Assembly (NCBI RefSeq): GCF_003853705.1 | Contig: NZ_QTQI01000011.1 | Span: 62,001 to 126,000 of the forward strand | From: Burkholderia sp. Bp8992 | Lineage (GTDB): Bacteria > Pseudomonadota > Gammaproteobacteria > Burkholderiales > Burkholderiaceae | Length of the DNA stretch: 64,000 bases | Direction: 5' to 3' | Part shown: positions 10,659 to 36,059 of the stretch, piece by piece | How positions within the stretch are numbered: the first letter of the stretch is position 1 | How the letters are laid out: every line of letters starts with the position of its first letter | Position numbers and translations under genes: made by a program | Notes under the pieces: model-generated | Told to the model about the DNA's origin: nothing | The model's input: only the letters and a program-made list of their open reading frames with translations | Databases searched by the model: none

Positions 10659-13600
10659 CCGTGGGCTCCCGAGGCATGTCGGGCGTCGTCCGGTGCGGGC
10701 GCCGCCGCCCGCGCGGCGTCCGGCGACGGCATGAGCCGCCAGATTGCGTAAGGCCGCACGTGCGGATCGAGCGACACGTACTGGCGATGGCCGCGCCAGG
10801 TCTGCGCATGCGCGGCGTCCTGTTCGAGTGCGTCGAGCGGTTCGCCGTCGACGAGCCCGAGGCCGCGCCACAGCGCCGCGTCGAGCGTGAAGTTCGCGGC
10901 CTGCGGATGCCACGGGTCGAGGCTGATCGCGACGAGGACCACGCTGTCGAACGCCGGCGTCGCCTTCATGAACACGAGCACCGAATCGTTGTCCGCGTCG
11001 ACGAACGTGAGGCCGAGGTGCGTCTGCAGCGCCGCGTGATCGCGCCGCGCACGGTTCAGCCGCGCGACTTCGGCGCCGATATGCGCGGCCTTGCTCCAGT
11101 CGCGCGCGCGCAGCTCGTATTTCTCGGCGTTCGCATATTCCTCGCTGTCCGGCAGCGGCGCCGATTCGCCGAGTTCGAAACCCGAGTACAGGCCCCACGA
11201 GCCGGCCAGCGTCGCCGCGAGCGCCGCGCGGATCACGAACTGCGAGCGCGGCGCGTTCTGCAGGTGGCGCGGGTTGATGTCGGGCGTGTTGACGAAGAAG
11301 TTCGGCCGGAAGAACTCGCGCGCGGGGCCGGTCGTCAGCTCGGTCAGGTAGTCGATGAAGTCGCGCTTCGACTCGCGCCACGTGAAGTACGTGTACGACT
11401 GCGAGAAGCCGACCTTCGCGAGGCGATACATCATCCCCGGCCGCGTGAACGCCTCGGACAGGAACACGACGTCCGGATGCCGGCCGCGCACGTCGTCGAT
11501 CATCCACGCCCAGAACGGCAGCGGCTTCGTGTGCGGGTTGTCGACGCGGAAGATCCGCACGCCCGCATCGACCCAGAACAGCACCGCGTCGCGCAGCGCG
11601 AGCCACAGGCCGGGCAGCGCGTCCGGCGCGTAGAAATCGGGGTTCACGATGTCCTGGTAGCGCTTCGGCGGATTCTCCGCGAAGCGCAGCGAGCCGTCGG
11701 GCCGCCACGCGAACCAGCCGGGATGCGCGGCGAGCCATGGATGGTCGGGCGAGCACTGGATCGCGAAATCGAGCGCGATCTCGAGCCCGTGGAGGCGTGC
11801 GGCAGCGACGAGCGCGCGAAACGAGTCGAGCGTGCCGAGCTGCGGATGCACGGCCGTGTGGCCGCCGTCGGGCGAACCGATCGCATACGGGCTGCCGACA
11901 TCGTCGGGGCCGGCGTTCAGGCTGTTGTTGCGTCCCTTGCGCGCGGCCGTGCCGATCGGGTGGATCGGCGGGAAGTACAGCACGTCGAAACCCATGTCGC
12001 GGATGCGCGGCAAATGCGCGATCACGTCGTCGAACGTGCCGTGCCGGTGCGGATCGTCGCTGGCCGAGCGCGGAAACATCTCGTACCAGCTCGAGAAGCG
12101 CGCCGCGCGGCGCTCGACGTCGACCGGGTAGGCCGTGTCGTCATGCGTGACGAACGGGCGGTAGCGCAGCGCCGCGAACGCGTCGGCGAGCGGCGGGGCG
12201 CCGAGCAGCGCGAGTCGCGCATCGGCCGGCGCATCCGTGAATTCGGCGACGAGGCGCTCCATCCGCGGGACCGCGCGCGGGTCGGCCGGCTCGGCGCGCT
12301 TGAGCGCGGCCGCGAGCAGCAACTGCGCCTCGCGCAGTTCGAGCGTCACGTCCTGGCCGGCTGCGTGCTTCTTCGTGACGTCGTCGACGAGCGACGCCCA
12401 GTCGTCGCGCCATGCGATCACGCGGAATTCATGCCGGCCGAGCCGGTCGAGCGTGACGCGCGCGTGCCAGCGGTCGTTCGGCTCGGCTTCGAACGGCACT
12501 TCGCGCCAGGTGTCTTCATCTTCCGCGCGCCACTGGAGCGCGGCCGCGAGGTGCGCATGGCCGTCCGTGAAGATCGACGCCCGCACGACGAGCGGTTCGC
12601 CGATCACGCGCTTGACCGCGAAGCGGCCGCCGTCGACCGACGGCTCGACGCGCTCGATCGCGATCCGGTCGGCCGCGAGCGCGGCGGACAGCGCGCCGCG
12701 CTCGCGCGACGCGTCGGGACGGGTCGTGACAGCGGGCGCACGCCACGCGTGCAGCAGCGCGTAGGCGCCGGGTTCGAGCGTGAACGGTGCGAGCGCGGCC
12801 GGCGGATGCGTTTGCGCACCGTCTTGCGTGACGACACGCGTGAAGCCGCCGGGCACGCCCGGCAGGATCGTTGCGGGGTCGACCGGCGCCGGCGCGTCGA
12901 GCGCGGGATTCAGCGCGATCAGCAGCGCGGCTTCGTCGTGTTCGAGCGACGGGCCCGTGCCGCGCAGCAGCACGGTCGCGGCTGCGCCCGGCGCGCTCAG
13001 TTGCGCGATCTCGCCGCGCGCCGCGGCGACGGGCGTCGCACGGCGCCATGCGTTGGCATCGGCGAGCGCGCCCGACAGGTCGAAACGGCCGTGGTCGAAC
13101 GCGGCGCGGTAGCGCCCGGCATCGGCGTCGCGCGCCATCAGCGGCACCGTGACGCCGCGCTCGAAGCCCATCGGTACGAGCCAGCCGGTGCCGACGGCCG
13201 CGGCCGTCCACAGCGCGCGGCGATACGCGCGGGCGACGGTGTCGTCCGATGCGTCGGACCAGTCGTCGGCGAGACGCGGGCCGTCCGGTGCATCGGGGAA
13301 GGCGATCGGCGAGCCGATGCGCCGCAGCAGCCGGTGTTCGTCCGCGAACCACGGCGCGTGCAGGTCCCACCAGCGCACCGACGAAAACACCGCGTCGAAC
13401 CCGGCAGCCTCGAGCTGCGCGAGCGCGTCGCGCGCATGGCCGGGCACGCCCGCGAGCACCGCGACGTCGGGGCGCGCGCGGCGCAGCGCCGCCCGCCAGC
13501 CCGGCCACCAGCCGGCCGGCAGATGATGCGGCGCATCGATCAGGAAACCGGCCGCGCCCGCATCGGCGAACGTGGCGAGGTGCGCGCACCACCATGCCGA

Positions 13601-26591: not shown

Positions 26592-28064
26592 TCAAATCGG
26601 ATACAGCGGCGCTTCGCCCTTGATCGTCAGCCACTGCCACTGCGTGAATTCCTCCCAGTTTGCCGCACCGCCGATGCTCGAACCGTTGCCCGAGGCGCCC
26701 ACGCCGCCGAACGGGTTGATCACTTCGTCGTTGACCGTCTGGTCGTTGATGTGCAGCAGCCCCGTGTTCAAGCGCTCGCCGATCCTCAGTGCGCGGCCGA
26801 CGTCGGCCGACAGGATCGCCATCGACAGCCCGTATTCGGTCTTGTTCGCGAGCGCGATCGCGTCTTCGTCGGTATCGAATGGCACGACGATCGCGACCGG
26901 CCCGAAGATTTCCTCGTCGAATGCCGGATTGCCCGGCGCGACACCGCTCAGCACGGTCGGCTCGAAGAACAGGCCGCGATGGCCGCCGCCCGTCTCGACG
27001 CGCGCGCCCGCGCGGCGGGCCGCGTCGACCACGCTCGCCGCATGGTCGCGTTGCGCGGCGTTGATCAGCGGGCCGAGGCCGACGTCGCCGGTGGCCGGGT
27101 CGCCGACGCGCAGGCTTCGCGCCGTCTCGACGAGCTTCGCGACGAAGCGGTCGTGAATCGCGCGCTGCACGAGCACGCGGCCGGTCGCCATGCAGATCTG
27201 CCCTTGATGCAGATACGCGCCCCACGCGGTGTTGGCGACCGCGCGGTCGAGGTCGGCATCGTCGAGCACGATCAGCGAATTCTTGCCGCCGAGTTCGAGC
27301 GATACCTTCTTCAGGTGGCGGCCCGCCGCTTCGCCGACCTTGCGCCCGGCCGCGGTGGAGCCGGTGAACTGGATCATCGCGACGTGCGGATCGGCGACCA
27401 GCGCCGCGCCGGCTGCGCCGTCGCCGGGCAGCACGTGCAGCAAGCCTTCGGGCAAGCCGGCGAGTTCGAACACGCGGGCGATCGCGACGCCGCCGCACAC
27501 GGCGGTGCGCGGATCGGGCTTCAGTACGACCGCGTTGCCGAGTGCGAGCGCCGGCGCGACCGCACGTATCGCGAGGTACAGCGGGAAATTGAACGGCGAG
27601 ATCACGCCGACTACGCCGCGCGGACGGCGGCGCGCGAGCGACAGCCGGCCGGCCGCCGACGGCAGCACTTCGCCGGCTGCGCGCGACGGCAGGCCGGCCG
27701 CTTCGTGCAGCGCCTTGATCGTGACCGACGTTTCGAACGACGCCTTCGCGCGCGTCGAGCCGCTTTCGCGCACGAGCCAGTCGACGATCGCGTCGAAGTG
27801 CGTTTCGGCGACTGTCGCCGCGCGGCGCAGGACTGCTGCGCGGTCGTCGTAGGGGAGGGCGAACCATGCGGGCTGCGCGCGATGCGCGGTAGCCGATGCT
27901 TCTGCGATGGCCGCGCTGTCGGCGACGCCGATGCGGCCGAGGGTGTTGCCGGTCGCCGGTTCGATCACGTCGGCTGATTGCGGGCTTGCGTGCCACTGGC
28001 CGTTGAAGGTCTTGCCGCGCCAGATGTCGGTGTCGAACAATGCGGGGGTGCTGCTGCTATCCAT
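26592..28064 (-). CDS. benzaldehyde-type aldehyde dehydrogenase (NAD+)
   Basis: 490-residue ALDH superfamily enzyme. Motifs include S-P-F-N-F-P-L (cofactor site), F-T-G-S-T-A-A-G-R, the general base in L-E-L-G-G-K-N, and the nucleophile Cys in H-Q-G-Q-I-C-M-A. The H-Q-G-Q-I-C-M arrangement and overall sequence are those of XylC/AreC and vanillin dehydrogenases. It starts at 28064 after AGGAG, and is the first gene of the two-gene unit with the alcohol dehydrogenase. Exact aldehyde is inferred. Confidence 0.87.
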   Translation of the reverse strand: MDSSSTPALFDTDIWRGKTFNGQWHASPQSADVIEPATGNTLGRIGVADSAAIAEASATAHRAQPAWFALPYDDRAAVLRRAATVAETHFDAIVDWLVRESGSTRAKASFETSVTIKALHEAAGLPSRAAGEVLPSAAGRLSLARRRPRGVVGVISPFNFPLYLAIRAVAPALALGNAVVLKPDPRTAVCGGVAIARVFELAGLPEGLLHVLPGDGAAGAALVADPHVAMIQFTGSTAAGRKVGEAAGRHLKKVSLELGGKNSLIVLDDADLDRAVANTAWGAYLHQGQICMATGRVLVQRAIHDRFVAKLVETARSLRVGDPATGDVGLGPLINAAQRDHAASVVDAARRAGARVETGGGHRGLFFEPTVLSGVAPGNPAFDEEIFGPVAIVVPFDTDEDAIALANKTEYGLSMAILSADVGRALRIGERLNTGLLHINDQTVNDEVINPFGGVGASGNGSSIGGAANWEEFTQWQWLTIKGEAPLYPI

Positions 28065-28669
28065 GTGCGCTCCTGGTGAATTCGGATCGGCCGGGTCGGT
28101 TTTGTTGCGTGGGCATCGACCGGCATGCGCGCGAGGGTAGGCGGGCGGGCGAAACGGGGGTATCCGGGTTTGTTCCCACGCGCGGAGGGCGCGTGGAGTG
28201 GGGGGCGTTCGCGATTGGGTGTGCGGAAATTGGACAGTTGTTGGGCGGGTTGTTGCCGCATGTGGTCTGGTGACACGGCGGATATGACTCGTGCAGCGCG
28301 ATGTGCGCCGTATCCGACGGCTCAGCGTGCAAACGTGCGCTCACACTTCTTCGGAGCGGCAGTTACCGACCCTTTGCGGCACGTCGGTGAGTTTCTCCGA
28401 ATGTCTCGGCCTCACCAAAAACGGACCTTACCATCCCGACTACGCCCCCCGCGGGGGGCTTGACAACTCCTGTTTAAGAATTAGCTCTATTCCGTCGAAC
28501 GGTGGCGCCAGCGAATATCGGATGGATCCGCACCGAGTGGAAAAGCTTTGCGGATGGAAGCCAAGCTTGGCATACTCAGCGAAACGAACTGAGGTGCCCT
28601 CGTGCGCGACGCAGCACCTCCCCTCCGTCACCGAAGCTGACTCCTTTTCGTTTTTCAGATCGTGGTAGT
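28065..28669. other. intergenic region ahead of the aldehyde dehydrogenase and the AT-rich island
   Basis: No gene supported. The left part (to about 28290) is GC-rich and should hold the promoter of the dehydrogenase operon, including an 8-bp inverted repeat. A perfect 16-bp palindrome, GCCCCCC-GC-GGGGGGC, sits at 28444-28459. It is directly followed by a drop in GC, so it may mark the left edge of the inserted ATPase island. Confidence 0.5.
28176..28196. promoter_or_regulatory. inverted repeat upstream of the aldehyde dehydrogenase gene
   Basis: CCACGCGC-GGAGG-GCGCGTGG, 8-bp arms with a 5-base loop, about 112 bases upstream of the aldehyde dehydrogenase start. It could be the binding site of the GAF/Fis regulator or a leader hairpin; the sequence alone does not decide. 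Confidence 0.35.
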
Positions 28670-28697
28670 TTGTTCGTTACACATTTTCCGATATTCT
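28670..28697 (+). promoter_or_regulatory. probable sigma-70 promoter for the ATPase gene
   Basis: TTGTTC (28670-28675), 16-base spacer, TATTCT (28692-28697), 79 bases before the ATPase start in locally AT-rich DNA. Both hexamers deviate from consensus at a few positions. Confidence 0.4.
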
Positions 28698-28776
28698 GTA
28701 CGCTGAAAGCCTTCGTTTGCAGAGTCGCACCATGCGCCAAGCGAAGTGATAAAACGACACAAAAACTCGAACTGAA

Positions 28777-30411
28777 ATGATAGAGACCAATCACGGTTTT
28801 CACTTTCGGCTTCGCCGCGGTGCATCAATCGGGGAGCTTGACGCCGAGTCAGATGGCGATTTTTTGTCGTCCTGTTTCGTGGATACGGGAGACTTCGAGA
28901 CGCTGAAAGACTGCCGGTCTCCACACCGCATAATTGTCGGACGGACGGGATCAGGGAAGACTGCACTGATCAATCATTTGATTGAAAATATAACTAACGT
29001 CATCGTAGTATCCCCAGAAAACCTTTCCCTTAATTATCTTTCAAATTCCGATATTCTTGTTACCCTAGAAAAAGCTGGGGTTAAGCTGGATATTTTCTAC
29101 GGATTGCTTTGGAAGCATGTTTTTGCCGTTGAGCTACTAAAGCGACGTTGCCATCTTACTAACGAAGAGAAGACGCGTAGCTGGATCGCGGGGTTTATTC
29201 CCACGCTGAAGCGAAAAGATCAGGCCAAGGAACGCGCTTTTAACTACTTGTCTACATGGGGCGATACTTTTTGGCAAGAGACCGAATATCGGGTGAAGGA
29301 AGTTACCGAAAAGCTTGAGGGGGAAATTACGTCGAAACTTGGGGCAGAAATCGGCGCATTGAAGGCGGATGTGAGCGGTAGCCTCAAAAGGATGGATGAG
29401 CGTAAGACGGAGGTTGTTAACAAGGCGCAGACCGTTATAAATTCGATTCAAATTAAAGCGCTTGCCGACGTGATCGCGTTAATGAACGAAGAAATATTTA
29501 CAGACCCCCAGCAAAAATATTATCTTGTTATTGATCGACTTGATGAAAACTGGGTTGATGACGATCTCCGATACAGGCTAATTCGCGCTTTGATTGAGTG
29601 TGTGAAGACATTTCGAAGTGTTGTGAATGTAAAAATAATTGTGGCTTTGCGTCAAGATCTCGTTCAAACGGTGTTTGAAAGGACCCGCGATGCAGGGTTC
29701 CAAGAAGAAAAGTACGCTGCGCTTTTTTTGCAACTTCGGTGGGAAAAGAATCTTTTGATAAAGATGCTCAATGAGCGAATTATACGGTTGGTGCGGGAGC
29801 AATATACTTTATCACCAATTGAGTTAGTAGATTTGTTTCCAAAAACGATTGGAAAAGAGGTGTTCGTTGATTATCTGCTAGAGCGAACTCACTACCGCCC
29901 GAGAGACGCGATCTCATTTATAAACGAATGCTTAAAGCGCTCAGAGGGTAAGGGGCAGGTTACAGTTCAGACAGTTAGAAATGCGGAAATAGAATATTCG
30001 ACAACACGAATGAATGCACTAAGTTTCGAATGGACTTCTCATTTCCCGGATTTCTTGGAATATTTGCCGCTGATAGAGCAAATGCCATCTAAATTTAGGC
30101 TATCTCAAATCCACAAAGATCGTATCAATGAGTTTGCTGTTGCCAAGTGTTTCGACGGTGAACATGCCGTCGACCCGGTAATTCGGGCCGGATTTGCATT
30201 TATAAATAATGATAACACTCATGCGTTCCGTGTTGAACTTATAAAAGCACTTTACTCAATAGGTGTGGTGGGTCTAAAGCTGGCGTCTTTTAATAGTCAG
30301 ATTTGGGCATATATGGATATCAACGCACCTGGTGACGGGCAAATTCGGGCCAACTCGGAAGTATTTATTCATCCCATGGCATGGGCGAGACTTGGCGTGA
30401 AGCCGAACTAG
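28777..30411 (+). CDS. P-loop ATPase, resembling the Sll1717 family; candidate defence gene
   Basis: 544-residue protein. Walker A is G-R-T-G-S-G-K-T at residues 55-62 and Walker B is Y-Y-L-V-I-D-R-L-D-E-N-W near 247-258. A sensor-like I-V-A-L-R-Q-D-L follows near 288, then L-R-W-E-K and, further on, H-Y-R-P-R-D-A-I-S-F. The R-x-D-L and R-P-R-D motifs fit large STAND/KAP-like P-loop ATPases such as the Sll1717 family (by memory). Charged helical stretches near 130-210 suggest a coiled coil. No membrane helix or nuclease motif is seen. Codon use is rich in TTA, ATA, AAA and AAT, unlike every neighbour, so it is acquired. It stands alone with its own promoter. The upstream ribosome site is weak. 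Confidence 0.8.
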   Translation: MIETNHGFHFRLRRGASIGELDAESDGDFLSSCFVDTGDFETLKDCRSPHRIIVGRTGSGKTALINHLIENITNVIVVSPENLSLNYLSNSDILVTLEKAGVKLDIFYGLLWKHVFAVELLKRRCHLTNEEKTRSWIAGFIPTLKRKDQAKERAFNYLSTWGDTFWQETEYRVKEVTEKLEGEITSKLGAEIGALKADVSGSLKRMDERKTEVVNKAQTVINSIQIKALADVIALMNEEIFTDPQQKYYLVIDRLDENWVDDDLRYRLIRALIECVKTFRSVVNVKIIVALRQDLVQTVFERTRDAGFQEEKYAALFLQLRWEKNLLIKMLNERIIRLVREQYTLSPIELVDLFPKTIGKEVFVDYLLERTHYRPRDAISFINECLKRSEGKGQVTVQTVRNAEIEYSTTRMNALSFEWTSHFPDFLEYLPLIEQMPSKFRLSQIHKDRINEFAVAKCFDGEHAVDPVIRAGFAFINNDNTHAFRVELIKALYSIGVVGLKLASFNSQIWAYMDINAPGDGQIRANSEVFIHPMAWARLGVKPN

Positions 30412-30647
30412 ATAGAAGATGAGTGGGGCGTCACAGCAGTGAAACTTAAACCCGCTCAAGCGGAAATCACCGCCGAGCGTAGGTCAGTTCGCCGAATCGT
30501 CGGTCGTCGCTTTGCAAAATGGGCAGCTCGTCGCTCGCCAACAGACGTTCGCCAGCCCGCCGCAAATGTCCGCTCATGGCCGAAGGCAGTCGGTCACCAC
30601 CCGTGACATGAAACCGGCGCAGCTCGCCCGTCAATCGACGATCCTGC

Positions 30648-30995
30648 TCACGCGAGTTCCACCGGACCGTGATCGTCGCAGTGATCGCCATGCGGGTGAT
30701 GCAGATGCCCGTCGACCAGGTAGTCGACGTGATCGCCGTGCGGTACCGCCTCGTGTCCGCAGCCGGGACCGTGGACGTGGCCCGGTTCGTGGCCGCCGCA
30801 ATTCGACGTGCACTGGTCCGGATTGTTTGCACTGACCTCGACCTTGTGTTCGTCGACATGATCGCCGTGCGGATGATGCAAATGGCCATCGTGCAGATAG
30901 TCGACGTGGTCGCCATGCTTGATTGCGGTATGTCCGCAGCCCGGGCCGTGCTGATGGTCATGGCGGGCATGATGAGCTTCGTTGCACGTACTCAT
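30648..30995 (-). CDS. His/Cys-rich metal-binding protein with two tandem repeats
   Basis: 115-residue soluble protein built of two ~38-residue repeats (about 12-50 and 70-108). Each carries H-G-P-G-C-G-H, H-G-D-H-V-D-Y-L, D-G-H-L-H-H-P-H-G-D-H; a C-x3-C pair lies in the linker. The His density indicates zinc (or related metal) binding or storage. Homologues are sometimes labelled zinc transporter permease, but there is no membrane segment here. AGGAG lies six bases before the ATG at 30995. A Zur-like box lies about 260 bases upstream, and the gene diverges from a TonB receptor operon. The roughly 236 bases downstream, to the ATPase gene, contain no gene I can support. Confidence 0.82.
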   Translation of the reverse strand: MSTCNEAHHARHDHQHGPGCGHTAIKHGDHVDYLHDGHLHHPHGDHVDEHKVEVSANNPDQCTSNCGGHEPGHVHGPGCGHEAVPHGDHVDYLVDGHLHHPHGDHCDDHGPVELA

Positions 30996-31254
30996 GCTTG
31001 TCTCCTATGTCTGCCTGGCCGCGCGAGACGATCGACGGACACCTGTCTGCGCGCCATCGAAGCACGCTTCGACGGGGGGATTGCGCCCGACGGAGAACTG
31101 CACTGTCACAGGTCACGAAACCGGAGCACGTGAGGCGCTTCCGGTCAGCATACTCGCGGCCCATCATGAATACCAGCCGGTGCTTCCGTGCCGTCCACTG
31201 CACTCGCCAGAGCGCGTCCATCCGCAACAAAAGGGGGCATTGTGCGCGACGAAT

Positions 31255-31272
31255 GCAATGTTATATCATCGC
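31255..31272. promoter_or_regulatory. Zur-like box
   Basis: GCAATG-TTATAT-CATCGC, a near-palindrome with one arm mismatch. It shares the TTATAT core and 6-6-6 layout with the box at 31355. Zur sites in proteobacteria contain a GTTATA core with dyad symmetry. It lies on the His-rich gene side of the intergenic region. Confidence 0.55.
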
Positions 31273-31342
31273 GAAATTCCGGCGCGACGCGGTCGTTTCA
31301 TATGCTTACGCCGGCAAAAAGCCTCCCGTAAGCGAGAAGTAA

Positions 31343-31387
31343 TACGCTGAAAACGATACGTTATATCGTATCCAATTCTTCAGCGTA
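31343..31387. promoter_or_regulatory. nested inverted repeats with a Zur-like core ahead of the TonB receptor
   Basis: The inner site, GATACG-TTATAT-CGTATC (31355-31372), has perfect 6-bp arms. It is enclosed by TACGCTGAA (31343-31351) and TTCAGCGTA (31379-31387), perfect 9-bp outer arms. The outer end lies 51 bases before the receptor start. The inner box likely binds Zur; the outer arms could bind another protein or form a cruciform. Confidence 0.6.
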
Positions 31388-31438
31388 ACGCTTCATCGTG
31401 CTCTCACGGGAACAAACGACCCCATCCCGAAGCGCACC

Positions 31439-33799
31439 ATGAATCTCCATCGCTTGCTACTGTCCCGGGCTGCCGTCCTGGCGTTCACCGCGGTCCTCCA
31501 GGCCGAGACGTTTGCTGCCGACGCCGGCACCACGCTCGCCGGCACCGTCGCTGATGCGCAAGGGCACGCGCTCGCCCACGCCCGCGTCGCGCTCCAGGAC
31601 GCCGATGGCCACGCAGTGGCGCACGTGCAGTCTGGCGCCGACGGCCACTTCCGGTTCGACAACGTCGCGCCCGGTACCTATGCGGCAGTCGTCGACGCCG
31701 CCGGTTATGCGACCGGCACGAGCATCGCGACGGTCGCACAAGGCGAAACGCCCGCGCCGCTCGACGTCAAACTCGGCAAGGACACCGGTACGCTCGACGT
31801 GACGGTCAACGCGAAACGGCTCGATCGCGCGCGCAACGGGCTGCTGCCGGACGTCGGCGCCAGCGTCTACCGGTTCTCGCAGGCCGACATCGACACGCTG
31901 CCCCAAGGTGAGAACACGCCGCTCAACCAGGTGCTGCTCCAGGCGCCGGGGGTGGCCTACGATTCGTACGGTCAATTGCACGTGCGCGGCGATCACGCGA
32001 ACCTGCAATACCGGCTGAACGGCATCATCATCCCCGAGCCGATCAGCGGGTTCGGCCAGTCGCTCGACACGCGGATCGTCGACCAGGTGAACTTCGTCAC
32101 CGGTGCACTGCCTGCGCAATACGGCTATCGGACGGCCGGCGTCGTCGACATCCGCACGAAGTCCGGCGACACCGGTAACGGCGGCACGATCGACGTCTAC
32201 GGCGGCAGCCATCAGACGATCCAGACGAGCGCCGACGTATTCGGTTCGAGCGGCCCGCTCAGCTATTACTTTTCCGGCACGCTCGGCGAGAACAATCTCG
32301 GCATCGAGGCGCCGACGTCGAACGGGAATCCGCTGCACGATCACACGCGGCAAGGCAACGCGTTCGGCTACATCTCGTATCTGCTGAATCCGCTCACGCG
32401 CGCGAGCCTGATGTTCGGCGCAACGAGCAACCGCTTCGAGATCCCGAACACCCCCGGCGTCGCGCCCGCATTTACGCTCAACGGGAACTCGACGTTCGAC
32501 TCGGCCGCGCTCAACGAGACGCAGGCGGAACTGAACAACTTCGCGGTGTTCGCGTTGCAAGGCACGAATGGCGGTGCACTCGACTATCAGGTCGCGCTGT
32601 TCACGCGCTACACGCGCACGAAATTCAATCCTGATCCGGTCGGCGATCTGATTTTCAACGGCGTCGCGTCCGACGATTTCCACAGCAACCGGGCGAACGG
32701 CGTACAGGCCGACTTCACCTATCGCCTGAACGACAGCCATACGTTGCGCGCCGGCCTGATGTTCGAGCGCGAGCACGCGGTCTTCAACGACAACGTCGCC
32801 GTGTTTCCTGTGGACGGCAACGGCAATCCGCTGTCGGATCAGCCGACCACGATTTCGGATTCGCACGACAAGTCCGGCTATCTGGTCAGCCTCTATGCGC
32901 AGGACGAGTGGAAGATCACGCCGAAGCTGACGCTGAACTACGGACTGCGTATCGATCGCATGAACGAATACGTGCAGGCCGGCCAGTTGAGCCCGCGCAT
33001 CGGCCTCGTCTATCGGCCGACCGAATCGACGACGCTGCACGCCGGCTACGCGCGTTATTTCACGCCGCCGGCGTTCGAACTGGTGTCCGATTCGACGATC
33101 GGCACCTTCAATGGAACGACGAACCAGAGCCCGAACACGCAGAACGATCCGGTCAAGCCCGAGCGCAGCCACTATTTCGACGTCGGCATCGCGCAGCGGC
33201 TCACCCCGGCACTCACGGTCGGACTTGACGCGTACTACAAGAAGGTGTCCGATCTGCTCGATGAAGGCCAGTTCGGCAACGCGCTGATCTACACGCCGTT
33301 CAACTACCAGTACGGTCGCGTGTACGGCCTCGAATTCACGTCGAGCTACAAGCAGGGCAACGTTTCCGCCTATCTGAACGTCGCGTATAGCCGCGCGCAG
33401 GGCAAGAACATCGAATCCGCGCAATTCAACTTCGGCCCCGACGAGCTCGCTTACATCGCGAACCATTGGGTCTACCTCGATCACGATCAGCGCATCACGG
33501 CGTCGTTCGGCGGGGCGTATACGCTCGGCAAGACGACCTTCAGCGCCGACGGGATCGTCGGAAGCGGCCTGCGGAGCGGCTTCGCGAATACCGATCGCCT
33601 GCCATGGTACGCACAGGTCAATCTCGGCGTGCTCGAGCACTTCGAGGAACCGATCGTGGGCAAATTCGATGCGCGCGTCGCGCTCGTCAACACGTTCGGC
33701 CGTGTCTATCAACTGCGGGACGGCTCGGGCATCGGCGTCGGCGCGCCGCAATTCGGGCCGCGGCGCGCGATCTATGCCGGGCTGACCAAGCACTTCTGA
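31439..33799 (+). CDS. TonB-dependent outer-membrane receptor, probably for a zinc-linked ligand
   Basis: 786-residue receptor. The signal peptide spans about residues 1-27, with cleavage after A-E-T-F-A-A. A CarboxypepD-regulatory-like domain (about 30-115: L-A-G-T-V-A-D-A, G-H-F-R-F-D-N-V-A-P-G-T-Y) precedes the plug (Q-V-L-L-Q-A-P-G-V, V-R-G-D-H-A-N-L-Q-Y-R-L-N-G). The beta-barrel follows and ends in a terminal Phe (T-K-H-F). The gene leads an exbB-exbD-tonB operon and sits behind Zur-like sites, beside a His-rich metal protein. This points to high-affinity zinc or zincophore uptake (inference). Confidence 0.88.
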   Translation: MNLHRLLLSRAAVLAFTAVLQAETFAADAGTTLAGTVADAQGHALAHARVALQDADGHAVAHVQSGADGHFRFDNVAPGTYAAVVDAAGYATGTSIATVAQGETPAPLDVKLGKDTGTLDVTVNAKRLDRARNGLLPDVGASVYRFSQADIDTLPQGENTPLNQVLLQAPGVAYDSYGQLHVRGDHANLQYRLNGIIIPEPISGFGQSLDTRIVDQVNFVTGALPAQYGYRTAGVVDIRTKSGDTGNGGTIDVYGGSHQTIQTSADVFGSSGPLSYYFSGTLGENNLGIEAPTSNGNPLHDHTRQGNAFGYISYLLNPLTRASLMFGATSNRFEIPNTPGVAPAFTLNGNSTFDSAALNETQAELNNFAVFALQGTNGGALDYQVALFTRYTRTKFNPDPVGDLIFNGVASDDFHSNRANGVQADFTYRLNDSHTLRAGLMFEREHAVFNDNVAVFPVDGNGNPLSDQPTTISDSHDKSGYLVSLYAQDEWKITPKLTLNYGLRIDRMNEYVQAGQLSPRIGLVYRPTESTTLHAGYARYFTPPAFELVSDSTIGTFNGTTNQSPNTQNDPVKPERSHYFDVGIAQRLTPALTVGLDAYYKKVSDLLDEGQFGNALIYTPFNYQYGRVYGLEFTSSYKQGNVSAYLNVAYSRAQGKNIESAQFNFGPDELAYIANHWVYLDHDQRITASFGGAYTLGKTTFSADGIVGSGLRSGFANTDRLPWYAQVNLGVLEHFEEPIVGKFDARVALVNTFGRVYQLRDGSGIGVGAPQFGPRRAIYAGLTKHF

Positions 33800-33855
33800 T
33801 TCCCCGACTTGAACGAGGTGACACGATGAATGAATAGACAAGTCTCGCCGATGCG

Positions 33856-34416
33856 GTGCGCATCGGCGGCTGGGTCGTTTATCCGCTCAGCGTGCTCGCG
33901 GTTGTCGCGCTCACGATCATGCTCGACCGCGCGTATGTGTTCTGGCGCCATGCGAGCGGTCGGGTCGGCGCTGCGTCCACGTTGCCGGACCGGCACGTCA
34001 TGCAACGGCTCGCAGTGATTCTGGATCACGGTGCGACGCCGCTCTGGCATGTCGAGGCGAAGCTCGAGGCTGCCGCCCAGCAGATCGAGCGGGACATGAG
34101 CCGCGGCCTGTGGCTGCTCGAGACGATCGTGACGGCGGCACCGCTGCTCGGCCTGCTCGGCACGATCGTCGGGATGATGCATTCGTTCCGGCTCATCGGC
34201 GGAGACGGGCTCGTGAGCCCTGCCGGTGTGTCGGGCGGCATCGCGCAAGCGCTCGTCGCGACCGCGATCGGCCTCGTCATCGCGCTCGTTTCGCTGTTCG
34301 CGTTCAACTACTTTTCGCGGCGCGTGGACAGGCTGATGGACGATCTCGAATCGCATGCGAACGAACGGCTCGTGGAACTGAGGCTCGCGCGCGAGCACGC
34401 GGGAGCTTCGTCATGA
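33856..34416 (+). CDS. exbB: ExbB/TolQ-family proton channel, start disrupted
   Basis: Energy-transducing inner-membrane protein with three membrane helices (near 5-22, about 88-108 and 130-150) and the family stretch L-L-G-L-L-G-T-I-V-G-M. As read, translation must begin at the GTG at 33856, giving 186 residues, but this GTG has no ribosome site. The natural start is the ATG at 33826, with GAGGTG five bases before it. That frame reads M-N-E-stop-T-S-L-A-D-A then joins this ORF, so codon 4 is an amber TAG. Either expression is reduced, or the GTG is used. exbD overlaps the stop by ATGA. Confidence 0.82.
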   Translation: MRIGGWVVYPLSVLAVVALTIMLDRAYVFWRHASGRVGAASTLPDRHVMQRLAVILDHGATPLWHVEAKLEAAAQQIERDMSRGLWLLETIVTAAPLLGLLGTIVGMMHSFRLIGGDGLVSPAGVSGGIAQALVATAIGLVIALVSLFAFNYFSRRVDRLMDDLESHANERLVELRLAREHAGASS

Positions 34417-34811
34417 AGCTGCGCCGCTCGCGTGCGTCGAAGCGCGGTCGTATCGAGATCATTCCGATGATCGACGTGATGTTCTTCCTGCTCGCGACGT
34501 TCATGCTGACTTCGCTCGCGATGCAGCGTCTCGACGCGCTGGGGATCGATCTGCCCCGCGGACGCGCGCAGCAGTTGCAGGCGGAGCGGCCATTGACGCT
34601 ATCCGTGAACCGCACGAACCAGATCTTCATCAATCAGCAACCGGTGCCGCTCGACCGCGTCAACGATGCCGTCGCGCGTCTGCTCGGACGGAACCACGAC
34701 ATCGTGATCGCGGCGGACGACGGCGCGACGCATGGCATCGTCGTGCAGGCGATGCTCGAAGCCCGGCGCGCCGGGGCCGAGCATTTTCTCGTCGCGGTTC
34801 ATCGTGACTAG
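34413..34811 (+). CDS. exbD: ExbD/TolR-family protein
   Basis: 132-residue protein with one N-terminal membrane helix containing the conserved protonatable Asp (I-I-P-M-I-D-V-M-F-F-L-L). The periplasmic domain has L-T-L-S-V-N and I-V-I-A-A-D-D. It works with ExbB to energise TonB. The start overlaps the exbB stop (ATGA) and the end overlaps tonB by 8 bases. Confidence 0.9.
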   Translation: MKLRRSRASKRGRIEIIPMIDVMFFLLATFMLTSLAMQRLDALGIDLPRGRAQQLQAERPLTLSVNRTNQIFINQQPVPLDRVNDAVARLLGRNHDIVIAADDGATHGIVVQAMLEARRAGAEHFLVAVHRD

Positions 34812-35517
34812 GGACCCGCTCGAAGCAGGTTCGCAGCTCGACCCGTCCGGGTATCGGTTCGCGGGCACCGTCGTGGTCGCCGGCGCAATCTGGTGCGCAT
34901 TTCTCCTGAGCTCGACGCGGCTGTTTTCCGGCGATGCGCCGGTTCGACAGGCGCCGAAGGCGATTCAGATGCAACTGGTCGAACTGCCCCCGCCGGCGCC
35001 GAATGCGCCGCAGCCTGTGCATGTGGCGCCGAAGGCAGCACCTGCGCGGAACCCTGTATCGAAGGCGTTGCCGGTTCGGCCCGCCACGCCTGCGAAACAG
35101 GCTGAAGCGACACCGTCGCATGACGTGCCGCCCGCTCGGCAACCGGCGCGGCCGGATCAGGCACAGTCCGCCAAAGCATCGACCGACGAAGCGCGGCTCG
35201 CGTCTGCGCCGAATGCGGCATCCGCTGCAACGCATTCGGCCGCAGCGGGAAACGCGCAGGCAAGGTTGATCTCGCAGCCGCTGCCCGTGCTGCCGGACGA
35301 TCTGCGTGAAGACGGCTATCAAGCCGTCGCGGTGGCGCGCTTTCTCGTTCACGCGGACGGCACGTTCGACATCGACCTCGTCAAACCGACAGCGAATCCC
35401 CGGCTCAATCAGATCCTGCTCGAGACGCTGCGCCGGTGGCGCTTTTTCCCCGCGATGGAAAACGGCCGCCCCGTCGAGAGCCGACAGGACGTACGCGTGC
35501 ATTTCAACGTGAACTGA
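34804..35517 (+). CDS. tonB: TonB-like energy transducer
   Basis: 237 residues from a GTG at 34804 that overlaps exbD. A single N-terminal membrane helix (residues 17-38) is followed by a Pro/Ala/Lys-rich spacer (about 45-140) and a TonB C-terminal domain (about 165-237: A-R-F-L-V-H-A-D-G, L-R-R-W-R-F-F-P-A). The helix contains no His, although the classic TonB helix has one that couples to ExbB. The dedicated ExbB may work differently. The start is inferred; no strong ribosome site is visible. Confidence 0.84.
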   Translation: MTRDPLEAGSQLDPSGYRFAGTVVVAGAIWCAFLLSSTRLFSGDAPVRQAPKAIQMQLVELPPPAPNAPQPVHVAPKAAPARNPVSKALPVRPATPAKQAEATPSHDVPPARQPARPDQAQSAKASTDEARLASAPNAASAATHSAAAGNAQARLISQPLPVLPDDLREDGYQAVAVARFLVHADGTFDIDLVKPTANPRLNQILLETLRRWRFFPAMENGRPVESRQDVRVHFNVN

Positions 35518-35741
35518 GCGGCCTCGAGTGGCTCGCGCGAAGCGTCCCGATCGTTCTTCGTCGCCCAAGCCGGAAGCCGAGCCGGCACCGCCGCTCGTTT
35601 TCCCCTCAGGAAAACCCTGATTCTCCCGGTAGAGCGCCGGTTTCAAGCCGATTTCCCGATGCCGCAGGCGGCCACATCGCACCCGCAACCACGCGATGGC
35701 GCGAATACCCGCGGCCACGCTCCATCAAGCCTTCCAGCCCG
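35518..35741. other. intergenic region after tonB
   Basis: No gene or clear terminator is visible in these bases. The expected divergent LysR regulator gene (BenM/CatM type) that normally borders such operators is absent here. Confidence 0.5.
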
Positions 35742-35764
35742 CATACCTAGCCAAGAAAGGTATG
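35742..35764. promoter_or_regulatory. first CatM/BenM-like dyad
   Basis: CATACC-N11-GGTATG, 6-bp perfect arms. Its centre is 56 bp upstream of the centre of the second site. The half-sites match the ATAC/GTAT pattern of BenM/CatM, although the spacing is wider than N7. Confidence 0.45.
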
Positions 35765-35801
35765 GCGCGCCGCAATATTTCGCGTTGTAAGCGCGATTTC
35801 A

Positions 35802-35816
35802 ATACCCGTCAGGTAT
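35802..35816. promoter_or_regulatory. BenM/CatM consensus operator ATAC-N7-GTAT
   Basis: ATAC-CCGTCAG-GTAT matches the known consensus for muconate-responsive LysR regulators exactly, extended to 5-bp arms ATACC/GGTAT. It lies 21 bases before a -35-like TTGGAC. Confidence 0.65.
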
Positions 35817-35837
35817 CAAAAAGCGCAATCAAAAGTA

Positions 35838-35868
35838 TTGGACGCTCCATTTCCCCGCCGCGTATAAA
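35838..35868 (+). promoter_or_regulatory. likely promoter of the cat-ben unit
   Basis: TTGGAC (35838-35843), 19-base spacer, TATAAA (35863-35868). The long spacer is typical of activator-dependent promoters and the operator sits immediately upstream. It probably was the catB promoter and now drives catA-benABCD. Confidence 0.45.
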
Positions 35869-35876
35869 TCCGTTCC

Positions 35877-36059
35877 ATGAACAGCCCCCACGCAGCGCGC
35901 CCCATGTTCTCCGCGACCATCGAACGCATCGAAACCCGCGGCGGCGACGTGACCGGTATCGGTAAAGGCACGACCGTCGCGGGGAGGGCCTACGGTCCGG
36001 AACGCCCGGAAGCGATGAAGCGCACGATCGACGTGTCCGTCCTACGTGCGACAGGCTGA
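35877..36059 (+). pseudogene. catB: remnant of catB (muconate cycloisomerase), internally deleted and truncated
   Basis: The 60-codon reading frame preserves the start of CatB. A-T-I-E-R-I-E-T is followed by T-G-I-G-K-G-T-T-V-A-G, A-Y-G-P-E-R-P-E-A-M-K and T-I-D. In intact CatB about 35-40 residues lie between the first two blocks, and about 300 residues follow the last. Here both are missing, with the frame kept open across the joint. It lies behind the CatM-like operators and 67 bases before catA, the expected position for catB. It cannot encode an active enzyme. Confidence 0.75.

What the first reader, a model, noticed from the sequence alone, without database searches (positions are those of the whole stretch)
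28440..30470. AT-rich island with a solitary P-loop ATPase: candidate undescribed defence gene
One 544-residue gene, far richer in A/T codons than all neighbours, sits alone between catabolic and metal-uptake genes. It has Walker A (55-62), Walker B (near 247-258), an L-R-Q-D sensor-like motif and R-P-R-D, and its own AT-rich promoter. Single acquired STAND-like or Sll1717-like ATPases often turn out to be phage-defence genes. No effector domain is visible, so the mechanism would be new. Acquisition is seen from base composition; a defence role is inference.
Basis: partly seen in the sequence, partly recalled or inferred. Interest (0 to 1): 0.72.

Follow-up and report, generated by a model that had tools for sequence, protein, structure and literature searches.

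The report
Mobile single-gene Sll1717-family ATPase
This is one horizontally moved bacterial gene for an ATP-using protein of an already named but unstudied family (Sll1717), one branch of which carries a published antiviral label, so it is probably an antiviral gene, but its way of working is not known.

Summary
A 544-codon gene (28777-30411) with 44% G+C sits in a window whose comparable stretches average 69%; the motifs named are there and conserved in relatives. It is not an undescribed family: it scores 215 bits (cut-off 75) against NCBIfam NF047389, "P-loop ATPase, Sll1717 family", over its full length. A related protein passes the cut-offs of both NF047389 and NF053860 (DS41_1, antiphage); DS-41 is listed in print as a validated phage-defence system. 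The window protein itself fails the DS41_1 cut-off (52 against 370). The gene moves as a unit of about 2.2 kb (28360-30554) that lies in unrelated surroundings in two other bacteria, under purifying selection (dN/dS 0.044). It is patchy (2 of 65 genomes of the genus, one of them chosen as centre because it has the gene), AT-rich against its flanks in 20 of 20 relatives, found on viral contigs and plasmids, and several times in restriction loci. Its site in the window is a variable insertion site in related genomes; only some cargo looks defensive. Best reading: an acquired AAA+/STAND-ORC-like ATPase, probably antiphage, without a visible effector. Defence is inferred; the mechanism is open. 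New member of a known kind.

The parts
28777..30411 (+). 544-aa P-loop ATPase, Sll1717 family
   Evidence: ORF; NCBIfam NF047389 215.2 bits, cut-off 75, residues 18-538
28360..30554 (+). transferred unit: gene with about 400 bp upstream and about 140 bp downstream
   Evidence: 95.0% identical DNA in Burkholderia sp. Bp9142 (L006); core 28540-30430 84.6% identical in Paraburkholderia unamae (L001); no other match over 150 bp between window 17-44 kb and these loci
28939..28962 (+). Walker A GRTGSGKT (residues 55-62)
   Evidence: G55, G58, G60 and K61 nearly invariant
29518..29550 (+). Walker B with DRLDEN (about residues 248-258)
   Evidence: D253, L255, D256 and W259 invariant in 20 aligned sequences
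29647..29658 (+). LRQD, sensor-1-like (residues 291-294)
   Evidence: R292 and D294 invariant, at the end of a strand 285-292 in the model; 'sensor-1-like' is my reading
29896..29907 (+). RPRD, sensor-2/lid-like (residues 374-377)
   Evidence: invariant in 20 aligned sequences, at the start of a helix 375-388 in the model; 'sensor-2-like' is my reading
30175..30408 (+). C-terminal helices with a short beta pair (about residues 467-544), winged-helix-like
   Evidence: model m5e7239af2a9c, secondary structure only; G499, K501 and W510 invariant
26592..28064 (-). left border of the variable site: aldehyde (benzaldehyde) dehydrogenase
   Evidence: orthologue annotated in B. pyrrocinia BX1; left flank conserved
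35560..36048 (.). right border of the variable site, before the muconate cycloisomerase/catA/ben genes
   Evidence: conserved in 18 of 20 fetched relatives; gene names from BX1

Best explanation
A horizontally acquired, single-gene cargo unit that encodes a AAA+ ATPase of the STAND/ORC-like kind in the Sll1717 family. It most likely protects the host, or the element that carries it, against phages or other invading DNA. Shown: a unit shared by three unrelated settings, family membership, intact and conserved ATPase motifs, purifying selection, and recurring mobile and restriction-locus settings of relatives. Inferred: at rest it is a monomer or nucleotide-bound inactive form; a phage product or invading DNA is bound through the helical insert (about 92-240) or the winged-helix-like C-terminus; ATP drives assembly of a ring or filament; this complex blocks phage replication or packaging directly, or recruits a host or restriction effector, since no effector domain of its own can be seen.
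For: NF047389 over cut-off, full length. A related protein (L117) passes both NF047389 (112.6, cut-off 75) and NF053860 DS41_1_antiphage (396, cut-off 370), and the DefensePredictor paper lists DS-41 among 31 additional validated defence systems (PMC13092281, passages read). Same unit in three unrelated settings. Patchy: 2 of 65 genus-level, 7 of 299 family-level and 8 of 274 class-level genomes, 0 of 14 control genomes; the centre genome G001 is one of the hits in each count by construction. dN/dS 0.044 against P. unamae, 171 of 210 differing codons synonymous. Gene G+C below the flanks in 20 of 20 relatives. Relatives in type I RM loci (L007, L010, L013), near a type IIG RM gene (L003) and beside PDC-S14 (L010), near McrBC (L006; Pfam; PADLOC gave no match to it) and beside DUF4062 (L011); on 3 viral contigs. 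A Klebsiella plasmid form occurs in 30 of 5,426 E. coli genomes, at 31 places, all on plasmids. Two over-cut-off members carry extra N-terminal regions. The weak fold hits include the defence ATPases RdrA and BrxC.
Against: No phage assay of this subfamily was found; the window protein fails the DS41_1 equivalog cut-off (52 against 370). PADLOC matches are weak (mad8 1.9e-6, PDC-M28C 2e-4). In the window it has no defence neighbour by eye: catabolic and metal-uptake genes flank it. Copies sit beside metabolic genes in L002-L004. The neighbour test is small, not independent and depends on which models are counted: 12 of 115 against 2 of 115 with restriction/abortive-infection models, p 0.010, but at most 13 against 5 with every listed PADLOC model, p 0.083. 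Fold matches are weak (best E 6.4e-4, to ClpQ-ClpY; TM mostly 0.15-0.37 by query). Several plasmid copies are labelled 'DNA repair protein'.
Confidence: 0.58

Rival explanations
1. An accessory ATPase of restriction systems: it modulates or loads type I (or other) restriction enzymes, and the solitary copies work with restriction enzymes encoded elsewhere in the genome.
For: Directly beside or inside hsd operons in L007, L010 and L013 and near a type IIG RM gene in L003.
Against: Only these 4 of 20 relatives (5 with McrBC in L006) showed restriction genes nearby; in the window, L001, L002, L004 and L005 none was seen (by eye); the plasmid copies looked at had none beside them. The rest of the window's own genome could not be searched.
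Confidence: 0.16
2. A DNA-metabolism or maintenance ATPase of mobile elements (ORC/Cdc6-like; replication, repair or stability of plasmids and prophages), not defence.
For: Several plasmid copies carry the label 'DNA repair protein' and two lie near replication or partition genes; very weak ORC/Cdc6 hit TIGR02928 (16.6 bits, cut-off 181); winged-helix-like C-terminus.
Against: The label rests on no experiment seen here; many copies are solitary and not on plasmids; one family member is a DS41_1 equivalog.
Confidence: 0.14
3. A superinfection-exclusion or addiction passenger of prophages and plasmids, helping the element rather than the host.
For: Copies on three viral contigs among phage-like genes (L099-L101, by eye); VapBC and ParD genes near two plasmid copies.
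Against: No toxin-like partner next to the window gene (by eye); the solitary unit stays under purifying selection.
Confidence: 0.09
4. A decaying hitch-hiker without function.
For: Broken or shortened copies exist: Bp9142, pMOL30, and pieces in G572.
Against: Intact frame in the window and in most relatives; dN/dS 0.044 at dS 0.84.
Confidence: 0.03

Closest known systems
NCBIfam NF047389, P-loop ATPase, Sll1717 family
   Same: Full-length match well over the curated cut-off (215 against 75 bits); the same name is used by RefSeq for E. coli plasmid relatives
   Different: The model has 454 positions; the window subfamily has about 545 residues, with a long helical insert (about 92-240) between strand 2 and the Walker B strand
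DS-41 (DefensePredictor), first gene, NF053860
   Same: Remote homologue (52 bits, residues 21-412); the DS41_1-type protein of L117 also passes the Sll1717 model
   Different: Far below the equivalog cut-off of 370; the model name suggests that DS-41 has more than one gene, the window gene is alone (inference from the name; supplements not read)
PADLOC PDC-M28 and mad8 (MADS)
   Same: Weak matches, partly over the ATPase core (E 2e-4 and 1.9e-6)
   Different: Scores too low for membership; no such partner genes noticed beside the window gene
RdrA (RADAR) and BrxC (BREX) ATPases
   Same: Among the best of the weak fold matches: AAA+ ATPases of defence systems; BrxC is placed in the ORC/Cdc6 clade (PMC12839542, passages read)
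   Different: E about 1e-3 to 1e-2, TM 0.2-0.3, different size and partners; no family link claimed
STAND NTPases (Avs, bNACHT, MalT; recalled) and archaeal ATPases 2qen/2fna
   Same: P-loop ATPase with conserved Arg after a core strand (sensor-1-like) and a lid motif with Pro-Arg; weak fold matches 2fna, 2qen and 8bob
   Different: No N-terminal effector and no C-terminal repeat array found by Pfam; nSTAND3 and NACHT models are below cut-off
GiPD474, single prophage ATPase giving phage resistance (PMC12724215, passages read)
   Same: Single-gene, prophage-linked ATPase
   Different: ParA/MinD-like by its authors, not Sll1717

Membership tests
Sll1717 P-loop ATPase (NF047389) | score over curated cut-off along the model | tested here: met
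   215.2 bits against 75, model 1-453 of 454
DS41_1 antiphage protein (NF053860) | equivalog cut-off 370 bits | tested here: not met
   52 bits
DS41_1 antiphage protein (NF053860) | that a DS41_1 member also belongs to the Sll1717 family | tested here: met
   one protein, L117, passes both models
STAND NTPase | Walker A/B, sensor-1 Arg and lid motif (recalled criteria) | tested here: inconclusive
   Motifs conserved; assignment to STAND rests on recall and weak fold hits
STAND NTPase | N-terminal effector and C-terminal repeat sensor (recalled criteria) | tested here: not met
   No Pfam domain over cut-off, only sub-threshold matches mostly at the P-loop; model shows helices and a small winged-helix-like end
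KAP NTPase (PF07693) | Pfam gathering score 20 | tested here: not met
   14.8 bits
nSTAND3 (PF20720) | Pfam gathering score 27.2 | tested here: not met
   21 bits, P-loop only
PADLOC defence systems | a confident model match | tested here: not met
   best mad8 25.6 bits, E 1.9e-6
Antiphage system | reduces plating or burst of phage | not testable with these tools
   needs a plaque assay
Active ATPase | ATP hydrolysis | not testable with these tools
   motifs intact only

The most novel reading that the evidence does not exclude
The standalone ~545-aa Sll1717 subfamily is a complete one-protein immune system: a AAA+ ring or filament whose own assembly, through the long helical insert and winged-helix end, stops phage DNA without any nuclease, NADase or pore. 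The same ATPase core is the common switch of a modular family in which other members carry added N-terminal domains (a ParA-like KGGVGR domain; possibly a nucleoside-deoxyribosyltransferase/TIR-like domain) or sit in restriction operons.
Probability: 0.2. Interest if true: 0.6.

Novelty: new member of a known kind. Interest (0 to 1): 0.36.

Why it matters
It ties a named but unstudied ATPase family (no paper in the held library contains 'Sll1717') to phage defence through a member that passes both the family model and the DS41_1 antiphage model. It also gives a small, effector-free version in which the ATPase core can be studied alone, and a single-gene unit that moves between unrelated sites without a visible recombinase of its own. 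If the antiphage role held, the relatives on plasmids (221 plasmid records with a match at E 1e-5), many of them labelled 'DNA repair protein' or 'hypothetical protein' among the rows listed, would gain a testable function.

Tried and rejected
Housekeeping ATPase: rejected by patchy presence and no control genome with the family (0 of 14). Native gene with odd codon use: rejected by the site in relatives, where other cargo or almost nothing lies, and by the shared unit elsewhere. RNA element: no Rfam match up to E 1 in 28060-30660. Inverted-repeat (transposon-like) ends: no convincing pair; the best candidate (28357-28380 with 30559-30582, 71% complementary) has no counterpart among the 24 pairs listed for L006, so I do not claim a transposon. 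A junction motif: CGACCCNTTGC occurs once in the window, at the left junction, but at least one match is found in 27 of 100 shuffles, and in the relatives only CGACCC is shared, so this is a hint only. Solved homologue by sequence: none convincing (best E 0.36, best E 0.029). Effector in the protein: none by Pfam. Structure comparison with the viral library and with pdb_via did not run. Literature: 'Sll1717' 0 papers, 'KGGVGR' 0 papers; broader searches gave context only. Same-species genomes were not at hand, so presence or absence within the species is unknown. Dropped before counts: the neighbour test used 115 of 134 ORFs (18 farther than 5 kb and one over 1300 aa left out; this also dropped hsdS of L013) and 115 of 117 control ORFs (two over 1300 aa left out); control stretches were contig 5 of each of 19 genomes, some very short, and the genome of L010 was not held. 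The site comparison used 20 of the 21 genomes whose match reaches the dehydrogenase side. The frameshifted L006 copy was left out of alignment A1. In one search a locus-level comparison (7 of 20 against 1 of 19) used numbers set by hand, with Pfam evidence on one side only; I do not rely on it.

Full report
Observation. The open frame 28777-30411 (+, 544 aa) is real. Its G+C is 0.445, against 0.691 (sd 0.030, minimum 0.615) for equal-sized windows away from it in the 64 kb; the maximum-likelihood AT-rich segment is 28634-30450. The four motifs of the finding are where it put them. The key residues of Walker B, LRQD and RPRD are invariant in the 20 aligned sequences (window plus 19 relatives), and those of Walker A are nearly so; two rows are fragments that lack that end. 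A separate promoter was not supported: the scan gave no sigma-70-like site upstream of the start.

Family. NCBIfam NF047389 (P-loop ATPase, Sll1717 family) matches at 215 bits, E 1.8e-63, cut-off 75, over residues 18-538. Pfam gives only sub-threshold matches, mostly at the P-loop, PADLOC only weak ones (mad8 1.9e-6, PDC-M28C 2e-4), and PHROG 13260 (unknown function) E 2.8e-32. The second NCBIfam match is NF053860, DS41_1_antiphage, 52 bits against a cut-off of 370. A DS41_1-type protein from another genome (L117) passes both models, 396 over 370 and 112.6 over 75, so by NCBI's own cut-offs at least one DS41_1 protein is also an Sll1717-family protein. In the DefensePredictor paper (PMC13092281; outline, passages and figure legends read) DS-41 is named among 31 additional validated systems, with homologues in Halobacteria; its supplements were not read.

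Mobility. The DNA from 28360 to 30554 is 95.0% identical to Burkholderia sp. Bp9142 (L006), and its core 28540-30430 is 84.6% identical to Paraburkholderia unamae (L001); shorter stretches at both ends of the P. unamae unit also match. No other match over 150 bp was found between window 17-44 kb and these loci. Between the window and P. unamae 171 of 210 differing codons are synonymous, dN 0.037, dS 0.845, ratio 0.044. The Bp9142 copy is interrupted (two overlapping frames); intact copies exist. Each of the 20 relatives found in genome contigs has a gene G+C below that of its flanks. Presence: 2 of 65 genomes of the genus, 7 of 299 of the family, some of them in pieces or shortened, 8 of 274 of the class by the NF047389 model, and 0 of 14 control genomes; the centre genome G001 (Bp9142) was chosen because it has the gene and is one hit in each of the first three counts. 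In PLSDB plasmids 221 records have a match at E 1e-5. A Klebsiella plasmid form has near-identical DNA in 30 of 5,426 E. coli genomes (23 with at least 80% of it), at 31 places, all on plasmids, and RefSeq calls the 15 full-length rows listed 'P-loop ATPase, Sll1717 family'. Three viral contigs hold relatives; by eye they lie among phage-like genes (terminase-like and RusA-like in L099). In GenBank phages only two records match, at 21% identity.

The site. In the window the unit lies between an aldehyde dehydrogenase and a His-rich/TonB-receptor module. The left-flank query matched 23 of 65 genomes, of which 21 on the dehydrogenase side (G001 and G009 match only its far end); I fetched 20 of these 21. 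In 18 of 20 the left and right borders lie on one stretch; in five of these 18 the gap is 63 to 455 bases, in 13 it is 0.9 to 7.2 kb with different content. B. pyrrocinia BX1 has about 132 bases there and B. arboris about 3.85 kb. None of these 18 genomes has the protein anywhere, and neither plasmid record shows it at the site. Three cargos were scanned: L078 (OLD-family nuclease, PADLOC Old 1.8e-55, with a type III-like endonuclease piece), B. arboris L031 (HNH_2, ParA-like, HEPN_RiboL-PSP) and L082 (a GTPase); the others, read by eye only, look largely metabolic or regulatory. So this is a variable insertion site with some defence-like cargo, not a pure defence hotspot.

Neighbours of relatives. 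Type I restriction genes stand next to the ATPase in L007, L010 and L013, a type IIG enzyme 3.4 kb away in L003, PDC-S14 next to it in L010; a second PDC-S14 neighbour is counted (by eye L020); McrBC in L006 by Pfam (no PADLOC match); DUF4062 about 290 bases upstream in L011. DUF4062 proteins were reported as antiphage NADases (PMC13174449, preprint, passages read). As a control I scanned 115 neighbour ORFs and 115 ORFs from arbitrary contigs of 19 genomes of the set against PADLOC at E 1e-30. By my count from the listed families, 12 of 115 neighbours and 2 of 115 controls match restriction, abortive-infection or PDC models, Fisher p 0.010; with every listed PADLOC model counted it is at most 13 against 5, p 0.083. 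Only 25 of 84 and 25 of 30 families are shown, the listing does not name the proteins, so some may coincide, and proteins of one operon are not independent. This is suggestive only.

Architecture. The predicted structure is good (mean pLDDT 85, pTM 0.84): a P-loop core whose strands carry Walker A, Walker B and the LRQD Arg, a long helical insert (about 92-240) before the Walker B strand, a helical region with RPRD, and a helical C-terminus ending in a small winged-helix-like unit (my reading of the secondary structure). Foldseek against the PDB gives weak matches to AAA+ and STAND-like proteins: ClpY, RdrA of RADAR, archaeal ATPases 2fna and 2qen (TM by target 0.47 and 0.52), BrxC of BREX, 8bob (maltose-system regulation) and ORC/Cdc6. 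There is no convincing solved homologue by sequence. Members of the wider family over the NF047389 cut-off carry extra N-terminal regions: a KGGVGR ParA-like ATPase in L115 (NF047398 140 over 90) and, in L111, a region weakly like nucleoside 2-deoxyribosyltransferases (PF05014 E 0.004, below cut-off). Fusions of ORC/Cdc6 ATPases with TIR and STAND domains have been described in defence neighbourhoods (PMC10853773, passages read).

Mechanism. Shown: ATPase motifs, predicted fold class, mobility, selection. Inferred: an ATP-switched sensor that assembles on a phage product or invading DNA and blocks it directly or through a recruited host factor. I give 0.58 to defence in some form, about 0.2 to a complete one-protein, effector-free system (a part of that 0.58), and the rest to restriction accessory, element maintenance, exclusion, or no function.

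Verdict. The family is already named and has a relative with a published antiphage label, so this is a new member of a known kind. Its interest lies in the effector-free form and the patchy single-gene mobility, not in a new family.

Noticed in passing
window 28064-36048: Variable insertion site between the aldehyde dehydrogenase and the ben/cat genes: nearly empty (63-455 bases) in 5 of 18 genus genomes with both borders, different 0.9-7.2 kb cargo in 13.
   Followed up: partly
window 28360-28380: A short sequence CGACCC marks the left junction in the window, in relatives with different cargo (L078, L079, L081, L082) and at the left end of the unit in L006 and L001; the longer CGACCCNTTGC is not rarer than chance would allow.
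   Followed up: partly
window 30487-30584: The right end of the unit has partial copies between genes, without the ATPase, in a Paraburkholderia sp. FT54 plasmid, and a shorter one in a P. hospita record.
   Followed up: partly
window 30648-35517: His-rich small protein, TonB receptor and ExbB/ExbD/TonB-like genes (by eye) form a second module in the same site; DNA relatives of its first part (query 30440-32400) occur in 10 of 65 genus genomes, one of which (G001) matches only the ATPase unit's right end.
   Followed up: no
L111:7838-10159: Sll1717 ATPase fused to an N-terminal region weakly like nucleoside deoxyribosyltransferases; a HipA-like gene lies nearby.
   Followed up: partly
L115:6716-9394: Sll1717 ATPase fused behind a KGGVGR ParA-like ATPase domain.
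   Followed up: partly
L117:9531-10046; L006:7202-7726; L118:12800-13477: Small proteins with an HExxH motif lie beside or near Sll1717-type ATPase genes in three loci, directly downstream of the DS41_1-type gene in L117; a possible partner. No NCBIfam match, and only a sub-threshold Pfam match for the L117 one.
   Followed up: partly
L002, L003, L004: In three Gallionellales/Nitrosomonadales genomes the ATPase gene sits beside an mtnP-like gene, with an mtnA-like gene on the other side in L003 and L004 (by eye).
   Followed up: no
L001:9232-9385 and 11936-12090: In P. unamae the unit is flanked by direct repeats of about 110 bases, 78% alike.
   Followed up: no
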